Shown: positions 4,040 through 4,632 of the stretch, piece by piece
Layout: each line of letters starts with the position of its first letter
Numbering within the stretch: the first letter of the stretch is position 1
Source: Sitta carolinensis
Taxonomy: Eukaryota > Chordata > Aves > Passeriformes > Sittidae
Length of the DNA: 64,000 nucleotides
Direction of reading: 5' to 3'
Assembly (NCBI GenBank): GCA_032173965.1
Contig: CM063283.1
Coordinates: forward strand, 16,782,501-16,846,500
Program-made: the position numbers and the translations under genes
Notes under the pieces: model-generated
What the model was told of the DNA's origin: nothing
The model's input: the letters and a program-made list of their open reading frames with translations, nothing else
Database searches by the model: none

Positions 4040-4560
4040 TTTGCTTCTAGGCTGCCGCTGAGGTTTGATGCTGTTGGCTTTGGGCTCCATGTCTTTGGCA
4101 GTGGTGTGGGGGAGCTCTATGATGCAGATAATATTCAGCATGGTTGCAGTTTGGTGCATGTCTGCTACCCTGCACTGGGACTCCACTTGGTCCAGTGATG
4201 TCAGCTGCCTCGGGGCCTTCTTCCCCTGTACTGATTAATATCAAATTGTACAGTCTCTCCATCTCCTATGCTGTGGATATATTTCCTGGGGTTGTTTTTT
4301 TTTATAGCAGTCTGATGGATAAACACATCTTCCTTGATACCATTCTGGGTTATGAAACTGTACTTATTTTGAACATTGAACCATTTTACTGTTCCTAAGA
4401 CTCTTTTAGCAAGAATCTTTTCACTTTTGCCAGTCCAGTGAGTTTGTGTTCATGGCTGTGTTGTTGCTGGGTGTGCTGTTGGCTAGGCTGCTGTTAGCTG
4501 CAGCCGTGGTGCTCCTGCTGGTGCTGCTGGATGTGCTGTCGGGGCTGTGGTGTGTGTGAT
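4040..4560 (-). pseudogene. Decayed Y-box (cold-shock domain) protein copy inside the retrovirus
   Basis: On the minus strand from 4419 the frame reads KILAKRVLGTVKWFN, then DVFIHQTAIKKNNPRKY and GDGETVQFDI. These are the diagnostic stretches of the vertebrate Y-box cold-shock domain (YBX1/2/3), which binds RNA and single-stranded DNA. The RNP2-type motif is kept as VFIHQ; the RNP1-type motif is altered, reading NKYSFI where the family has NGYGFI. Near 4230 the frame shifts, and the next frame (to 4047) continues with EAADITGPSGVPVQGS, the conserved segment just after the domain, then a basic/His-rich tail. Upstream (4560-4430) is an Ala/Pro-rich stretch like Y-box N-termini, with stops at 4485 and 4452. 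No introns are visible, so it is mRNA-derived. Which paralogue gave rise to it is unresolved. The copy is not functional. Confidence 0.9.
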
Positions 4561-4632
4561 GTTTTGTCCATAAAGGGACAAAAGCACATCACTGTCTTCC
4601 TGTCCACACTGGAAACATCTGACTCTCTTTAG
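4561..4632 (-). pseudogene. Gag nucleocapsid zinc-knuckle remnant
   Basis: On the minus strand the frame reads LKRVRCFQCGQED, with the two cysteines at codons 4617-4615 and 4608-4606. Basic residues followed by Cys-X2-Cys-Gly is the first half of a retroviral CCHC knuckle, which binds genomic RNA. The His and last Cys are missing: sequence diverges just after GQED, where the Y-box-related stretch begins. The knuckle lies one frame away from the capsid reading frame ending at 4722, so at least one indel separates them. Its phase matches that of the cold-shock domain at 4419 (66 codons apart). Confidence 0.7.

What the first reader, a model, noticed from the sequence alone, without database searches (positions are those of the whole stretch)
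4040..4632. Host Y-box cold-shock domain captured between gag and env of an avian endogenous retrovirus
Seen: capsid, then a CFQCGQ knuckle start, then an intronless Y-box domain (GTVKWFN, DVFIHQTAI, GDGETV, GVPVQG), then an Env-like frame, polypurine tract and LTR, all on one strand, with pol absent. Known: transducing retroviruses replace pol or env with host cDNA, and LTR-element enzymes can copy host mRNAs by template switching; CR1 rarely makes processed pseudogenes in birds. Inferred: this Y-box copy entered the retroviral RNA rather than landing in the provirus later. I know of no described retroviral capture of a Y-box gene.
Basis: partly seen in the sequence, partly recalled or inferred. 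Interest (0 to 1): 0.82.

Follow-up and report, generated by a model that had tools for sequence, protein, structure and literature searches.

The report
Retroviral Gag fused to cold-shock domain
In this bird genome a family of ancient retrovirus relatives picked up part of the host's own RNA-binding gene YBX1 in place of their replication enzymes and spread it to many chromosomal sites, apparently keeping it working as part of their coat protein while they were mobile.

Summary
Confirmed, and larger than reported. On the minus strand the window holds a broken provirus: gag capsid, zinc-knuckle start, an intronless YBX1 cold-shock domain (CSD), a tail and a 3' LTR; pol is absent; "Env" is not confirmed. 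The Y-box block lies at 26 loci besides the spliced YBX1 gene; I read 24. Seventeen (class A) are of the window's kind. Against a pol-bearing relative without Y-box (L038) the block replaces about 3.2 kb, knuckle to integrase, with one 5' junction in 16 of 17. Seven (class B) have another LTR, no capsid, and mostly still show YBX1 5'UTR/exon 1, so capture probably happened there first. Paired LTRs, target duplications and unrelated flanks show mobilisation as a unit. In 7 of 15 class A copies capsid, knuckle, linker and CSD lie in one frame (stops in 6 of the 7). Internal-branch changes fall on third codon positions (13/10/45; non-coding control 28/29/22; capsid 6/5/23), more weakly on terminal branches (77/75/104): purifying selection while mobile. 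Best reading: a Gag-CSD fusion in non-autonomous ERVs; its RNA-handling role is inferred. One genome only; one young subfamily spread with the fusion broken.

The parts
2838..3205 (-). 3' LTR (about 368 bp), TG start at 3205
   Evidence: Same piece occurs twice about 4 kb apart in several related loci; alignments of their 5' LTRs end at about window 3205 and 2838
3022..3027 (-). AATAAA polyadenylation signal in the LTR
   Evidence: sequence
3206..3224 (-). purine-rich tract before the 3' LTR (polypurine tract)
   Evidence: sequence; a similar run stands before the 3' LTR of L031 and L018
3208..3516 (-).
3516..3519 (-). 3' border: homology to L038 resumes here (L038r 6725)
3519..3617 (-). MID 430-528, also found alone elsewhere in the genome (C1:111317452, C7:26073616, C9:8200830), absent from class B
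3618..4046 (-). MID 1-429, block shared by classes A and B, no codon-phase signal; its last ~110 nt (3618-3727) also occurs before an LTR-B without CSD
4047..4265 (-). ORF piece: end of the captured YBX1 (exon 5 part, ...TGPSGVPVQGS...) plus short tail, ending in a stop
4096..4345 (-). intronless homology to YBX1 exons 3-4-5 (75% nt identity over 244 bases), ending inside exon 5
4201..4449 (-). cold-shock domain ORF (82 aa)
4450..4550 (-). Q/H-rich linker; 5' border with retroviral sequence at about 4550 (= L038r 3565)
4576..4617 (-). nucleocapsid zinc knuckle (CFQCGQ..., decayed in this copy)
4722..5195 (-). Gag capsid ORF piece; family homology up to about 5103

Best explanation
Spliced YBX1 mRNA (5'UTR to mid exon 5) was copied into the RNA of an LTR-B-type endogenous retrovirus by reverse-transcriptase template switching. 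The resulting Y-box block was later passed by a second pair of template switches into a beta-like ERV related to L038. There it replaced the end of nucleocapsid, protease and polymerase, and the CSD became the C-terminus of Gag (capsid - one CCHC knuckle - Q/H-rich linker - CSD). Both families are non-autonomous: reverse transcriptase and integrase must come from pol-bearing relatives. They occupy at least 26 loci, filled over a long period, while the CSD was kept under purifying selection. Most likely role (inferred): the CSD gives Gag the RNA-binding and RNA-chaperone activity of YB-1, supporting packaging or assembly of the element's own RNA. SHOWN: shared junctions, LTR pairs, target duplications, intronless origin, pol replacement, codon-position signature. 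INFERRED: order B then A, translation as a fusion, helper in trans, RNA-packaging role.
For: 26 ERV loci plus host YBX1 by DNA search (24 read). Class A 5' junction at L038r 3558-3567 in 16 of 17 loci; homology resumes at 6725-6747 in 11 of 17, never earlier. L038 has protease, RT, RNase H (just under its Pfam cut-off) and integrase pieces and no CSD match. LTR pairs in 13 of 24 loci; perfect 6-bp duplications in L031, L018 and L028, 5 of 6 bases in L013, L019, L032; flanks of the 12 loci tested are unrelated. Host YBX1 is spliced (L036, L034); ERV copies run across exons 3-4-5 without introns and nearly all end inside exon 5. Class B shows YBX1 5'UTR and exon 1: L027 score 109 against a shuffled maximum of 48, five more of seven above theirs by less. 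Class A is one clade (95/99) in a tree of 19 copies. Capsid-knuckle-linker-CSD without frame change in 7 of 15 class A copies; L020 has a stop-free 249-aa frame over capsid end, knuckle and CSD. Internal-branch changes by codon position, CpG-masked: CSD 13/10/45 (0 of 5000 permutations; unmasked 33/15/56, 3 of 5000), MID-only tree 9/11/39; controls MID 28/29/22 and CA 6/5/23. CSD aromatic and His residues match YBX1 in 17-20 of 21 copies; mean over the CSD 0.73, which includes positions changed in every copy.
Against: The subfamily L016/L021/L031, with a young member (L031 LTRs K2P 0.016), shares a one-base gap inside the CSD and a stop at the capsid end, so it spread without an intact fusion. 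Only 2 of 21 copies have a CSD free of stops and frameshifts. Six of the 7 one-frame class A copies have stops in the knuckle-to-CSD stretch. Capsid and CSD share a frame at both ends in 9 of 15, when 5 are expected by chance, and the copies are not independent. The frame relation in class B is unclear. Terminal branches also show a third-position excess, 77/75/104 (78 of 5000 permutations). YBX1 joins class B_L014 with weak support, 78/79. No expression or protein data, one genome only.
Confidence: 0.78

Rival explanations
1. Passenger capture: the Y-box block was taken up once by template switching and hitch-hiked; it has no role in the element.
For: Subfamily L016/L021/L031 amplified with a shared gap in the CSD; 19 of 21 copies have a stop or frameshift in the CSD; elements lacking pol are mobilised in trans anyway (general knowledge).
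Against: Internal-branch changes are concentrated at third codon positions in class A and class B separately (8/6/25 and 4/3/19), as in capsid (6/5/23) and unlike MID (28/29/22). Stops: 9 in 18 copies against 24 +- 4.6 if the A-B differences were dealt at random. The block was kept in two LTR families.
Confidence: 0.15
2. Host YBX1 retrocopies (LINE/CR1-made processed pseudogenes) landed independently inside proviruses.
For: Intronless YBX1 sequence; a pol-bearing provirus without Y-box exists.
Against: Shared junction in 16 of 17 class A loci, no match to the pol interval, no poly(A) seen, 3' end inside exon 5, target duplications at the LTR ends.
Confidence: 0.02
3. Regulatory or interfering use: the fusion protein (or its RNA) acts against related retroviruses or on the LTR promoter, rather than in RNA packaging.
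For: YB-1 is a DNA- and RNA-binding protein; it affects MMTV particle production and HIV RNA levels. A Gag fusion without pol could interfere with helper Gag (general knowledge).
Against: No direct evidence; conservation of Gag capsid itself suggests a structural role in the particle.
Confidence: 0.2

Closest known systems
Acutely transforming (transducing) retroviruses with Gag-host fusions (recalled, e.g. gag-onc viruses)
   Same: Spliced host cDNA replaces pol and/or env, fused to gag; defective, helper-dependent
   Different: Host gene is an RNA-binding protein, not an oncogene; endogenous, multi-copy, long-lived, with a purifying-selection signature, present in two LTR families
LTR-mediated retroposition in animals and maize Bs1 (review PMC5408686, passages)
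   Same: LTR-element template switching incorporates part of an mRNA; reported for chicken among others
   Different: In the passages read these are retrocopies or a plant element; here the host domain became a constant, mobilised part of ERV families
[quoted passage not shown]
   Same: Host genes inside LTR elements, some under purifying selection
   Different: Plants; no Gag-CSD fusion mentioned in the abstract
MMTV Gag recruiting host YB-1 (PMC4486188 passages; Bann et al. 2014 cited there, not held)
   Same: Betaretrovirus Gag found with YB-1 and viral RNA; knock-down lowers particle production
   Different: In MMTV YB-1 is a host protein in trans; here the CSD is encoded by the element, behind the knuckle
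Betaretroviral dUTPase and G-patch domains (recalled)
   Same: Extra nucleic-acid-related domains acquired beside Gag/protease
   Different: Different domains; autonomous viruses

Membership tests
Transducing (host-gene-capturing) retrovirus | Intronless host sequence inside LTR-bounded element on the same strand | tested here: met
Transducing (host-gene-capturing) retrovirus | Same junctions in independent insertions | tested here: met
   16 of 17 class A loci; unrelated flanks in the 12 loci tested (both classes)
Transducing (host-gene-capturing) retrovirus | Viral replication genes replaced; helper needed | tested here: met
   no match to the pol interval in 17 class A loci; helper dependence itself inferred
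Transducing (host-gene-capturing) retrovirus | Host part expressed as Gag fusion | tested here: inconclusive
   one frame in 7 of 15 class A copies, stops in 6 of them; no expression data
LTR-mediated retrocopy | Partial mRNA copy, no poly(A), flanked by LTR-element sequence | tested here: met
LINE/CR1 processed pseudogene | 3' end with poly(A) and target duplication around the retrocopy | tested here: not met
   homology ends inside exon 5; duplications lie at LTR ends
Class II (beta-like) endogenous retrovirus | Gag_p24 N and C domains, CCHC knuckle, retroviral PR/RT/RH/IN in autonomous relative | tested here: met
   (knuckle, RNase H and IN zinc domain below Pfam cut-offs); class II assignment from recalled Gag features, no RT tree made
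Class II (beta-like) endogenous retrovirus | env gene | tested here: inconclusive
   no Env family match in the few tail ORFs scanned; not every frame was scanned
Y-box (YBX) cold-shock protein family | CSD with RNP1/RNP2 aromatic residues | tested here: met
   Pfam CSD 3.5e-16; residues kept in 17-20 of 21
Y-box (YBX) cold-shock protein family | C-terminal basic/acidic repeats | tested here: not met
   homology stops after about RGPPRNYQ in exon 5 in nearly all copies

The most novel reading that the evidence does not exclude
A lineage of retroviruses remade its Gag by joining a host cold-shock domain to a single zinc knuckle, so that the CSD does part of the nucleocapsid's RNA work. The module passed between two ERV families and was kept functional over much of passerine history.
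Probability: 0.45. Interest if true: 0.93.

Novelty: new variant of a known kind. Interest (0 to 1): 0.86.

Why it matters
Host-gene capture by vertebrate retroviruses is known mainly from short-lived oncogene viruses (recalled). This would be a fossil record of a non-oncogene capture that succeeded: kept, selected, exchanged between families, amplified. YB-1 is already linked to MMTV Gag and to HIV RNA, so an element that encodes the domain itself makes the question 'what does YB-1 do for Gag?' open to comparison across birds, and suggests that nucleocapsid function may be partly replaceable by a cellular RNA-chaperone fold.

Tried and rejected
Env: the window ORF and two related ORFs scanned in Pfam and the window ORF in the protein database: nothing, so Env was dropped. 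Independent pseudogene insertion: rejected by shared junctions. MID as YBX1 sequence: rejected, only chance-level short matches to the YBX1 loci. First parsimony count included the host branch, which is itself third-position biased; it was replaced by ERV-only trees. Frame relation of matrix and CSD in class B: inconclusive. Viral contigs: no capsid relative; one 40%-identical CSD hit (L001), not followed. Papers: searches listed no Y-box capture by a retrovirus (search listings only; one search listed 12 of 426; most subscription papers are not held). Left out of the codon analysis (18 of 24 used): L010, L019, L022, L024, L025, L026. Left out of the tree (19 of 24 used): L010, L019, L022, L024, L026. 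Repeat pairs of L029 and L030 were not counted as LTR pairs of these elements.

Unfinished: a more distant match to MID 1-361 at C26:5958893 could not be read. A genome search with L038 RT did not complete, nor was one with YBX1 protein. Two of the 26 loci (C1:6785775, C39:38466839) are known by coordinates only.

Full report
WHAT IS IN THE WINDOW. All features lie on the minus strand. In element direction: a capsid ORF (5195-4722; Pfam Gag_p24_C 6.9e-12), a nucleocapsid zinc-knuckle start at about 4617, a Q/H-rich linker, a cold-shock domain ORF (4449-4201; Pfam CSD 3.5e-16; best solved structures human YB-1, E 2e-29), the frame-shifted continuation of the Y-box protein (4265-4047), a tail, a purine tract and an LTR (3205 to about 2838). 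Homology to the relative L038 ends near 5103 and no second LTR was found in 1-9000, so this copy is truncated. The ORF called Env-like matches no Env family (two related ORFs), and no database protein shared enough words with it.

GENOME-WIDE COPIES. The window lies at G000:C1:16782501-16846500 of a 1.03-Gb genome. The one capsid hit in the protein database is from the passerine Zosterops borbonicus, and the contig sizes fit a passerine (recalled). A protein search with the CSD gave 30 matches; a DNA search gave 29 rows, which I count as 26 ERV loci (two loci are split into two rows each) plus the host YBX1 gene. I read 24 of the 26 (the window and L010-L032). Two classes appear. Class A (17 of 24): retroviral sequence of the window's kind around the Y-box; a capsid match in 15 of 17 (not L010, L025) and the post-MID tail in 14 of 17 (not L021, L022, L026). 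Class B (7 of 24: L012, L014, L017, L027, L028, L030, L032): Y-box and MID up to about position 429 only, no capsid match (0 of 7), a different LTR of about 396 bp matched in all seven, and a matrix-like frame inside the element in five (L014, L017, L028, L030, L032; none in L027; the weak one of L012 lies outside its LTR pair).

PROOF OF MOBILISATION AS A UNIT. Thirteen of 24 loci have paired LTRs, K2P divergence 0.016 to 0.12, with one outlier of 0.249. Perfect six-base target duplications flank L031 and L018 (class A) and L028 (class B); L013, L019 and L032 have five of six bases; in L011, L012, L014, L015, L017, L020 and L023 I saw no convincing one. Flanks of the 12 loci tested show no similarity to each other. 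With a recalled passerine rate near 2.2e-9 per site per year the LTR pairs span very roughly 4 to 27 million years (outlier older).

WHAT WAS REPLACED. L038 (C4:52447000-52455000) has no CSD match, has a capsid 76% identical to the window's over its better-matching part, and carries protease, RT, thumb, RNase H (just under its cut-off) and integrase pieces. Aligned to it, class A copies stop at L038r 3558-3567, just behind the knuckle, in 16 of 17 loci (L025 lacks this side) and resume at 6725-6747 in 11 of 17 (in the other six the next match lies further on or is missing). None of the 17 matches the interval between. So about 3.2 kb of nucleocapsid end, protease and polymerase was exchanged for the Y-box block in what looks like one ancestral event. 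L037 is a second, more distant pol-bearing relative (54% capsid identity).

SOURCE OF THE INSERT. Host YBX1 is a normal spliced gene (exons 1-2 in L036, exons 3 onward in L034); YBX3 is in L033. The ERV copies cross the exon 3-4-5 borders without introns at 72-84% identity (the 84% over only 95 bases) and nearly all end inside exon 5. Class B still shows YBX1 5'UTR from about -76 and exon 1: L027 scores 109 against a shuffled maximum of 48 (40 shuffles); L014, L017, L030 and L032 exceed theirs by 12 to 25, L028 by 5, L012 does not. Five class A copies tested score 33-36 against 28-33, near chance. In class B an extra Q-rich stretch follows exon 1; class A begins inside that stretch. In the tree of the linker-CSD-MID block (19 copies and host) class A is one clade (95/99) and YBX1 joins B_L014 with weak support (78/79). 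MID 320-429 looks like the ordinary 3' tail of LTR-B elements: at C1:61028559 LTR-B follows a MID 321-429 match at about the spacing seen in L032, with no CSD match there. Capture in an LTR-B element first, then transfer to the L038-like family, is the simplest order; this order is inferred. Where MID 1-320 comes from is open.

FRAME. Of 15 class A copies with both anchors, 9 have capsid end and CSD in the same frame (5 expected by chance, copies not independent), and in 7 the knuckle and linker lie in that frame too. Six of these 7 have one or more stops in the printed stretch; L020 has none and keeps an open frame of 249 aa over capsid end, knuckle and CSD; Pfam finds CSD at 2.6e-17 and, below its cut-off, zf-CCHC. 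L024 has 296 open codons from capsid into the start of the CSD. In class B the relation of matrix frame and CSD frame is unclear.

SELECTION. Laid on YBX1 codons, 13 of 21 copies have no stop in about 100-110 codons; two (L018, L019) have neither stop nor frameshift although their LTRs differ by K2P 0.09-0.11; 19 of 21 have a stop or frameshift. On a tree of 18 copies without the host gene, CpG-masked, changes at codon positions 1/2/3 are 13/10/45 on internal branches (0 of 5000 permutations as extreme; unmasked 33/15/56, 3 of 5000) and 77/75/104 on terminal branches (a weaker excess, 78 of 5000); with a tree from MID alone the internal counts are 9/11/39. Controls: MID 28/29/22, capsid in class A 6/5/23, CSD in class A 9/5/21 on internal branches. 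Within class A 8/6/25 and within class B 4/3/19. Aromatic and histidine positions that contact RNA in YB-1 (role recalled) match YBX1 in 17 to 20 of 21 copies; the CSD mean is 0.73, lowered by positions changed in every copy. So the CSD behaved like a viral gene while lineages were active. Against this, L016, L021 and L031 share a gap in the CSD and a stop at the capsid end, so at least one subfamily spread without the intact fusion.

HOW IT MOST LIKELY WORKS. Shown: capture from mRNA, replacement of pol, spread as a unit, codon-level constraint. Inferred: the element makes Gag ending in a CSD; its RNA is reverse transcribed and integrated by enzymes of pol-bearing relatives; the CSD binds RNA for packaging, stability or assembly. 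[quoted passage not shown] YB-1 supports viral RNA levels and particle production of HIV (PMC6040738, passages). LTR-mediated template switching into mRNAs is described, chicken included (review PMC5408686, passages).

NOVELTY. The mechanism class (host capture by template switching; Gag-host fusion) is known. A long-lived, selected, multi-copy Gag-CSD element shared by two ERV families appeared in none of my searches (listings only, showing 12 of 426). I file it as a new variant of a known kind.

Noticed in passing
G000:C1:16548444, 17904055, 18719489, 20618384: Four LTR-B copies 96% identical to that of L032 (C1:15.996 Mb) lie within 5 Mb of it, on both sides of the window, while the others listed are 77-88% alike (40 of 164 candidates scored): a local burst or duplication.
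   Followed up: no
G000:C26:5958893-5959231: A 72% match to MID 1-361 away from any CSD match; possible older source of the MID block.
   Followed up: no
window 28334-28654 (-): ORF ending like a CR1 LINE reverse-transcriptase C-terminus (LTQRVVEHWNRFPREVV...; recalled motif).
   Followed up: no
window 59014-59598 (+) and L022 around 1693-2244: Same protein-like string (QRRILVLSGHTRCQSLNLSTHWFD) in both places, probably an interspersed repeat.
   Followed up: no
L016, L021, L031: Three related class A copies share a one-base gap in the CSD and a stop at the capsid end, so this subfamily spread after the fusion was broken.
   Followed up: partly
G000:C39: Eight of the 26 Y-box ERV loci lie on contig C39 (76.8 Mb, perhaps the Z chromosome).
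   Followed up: no
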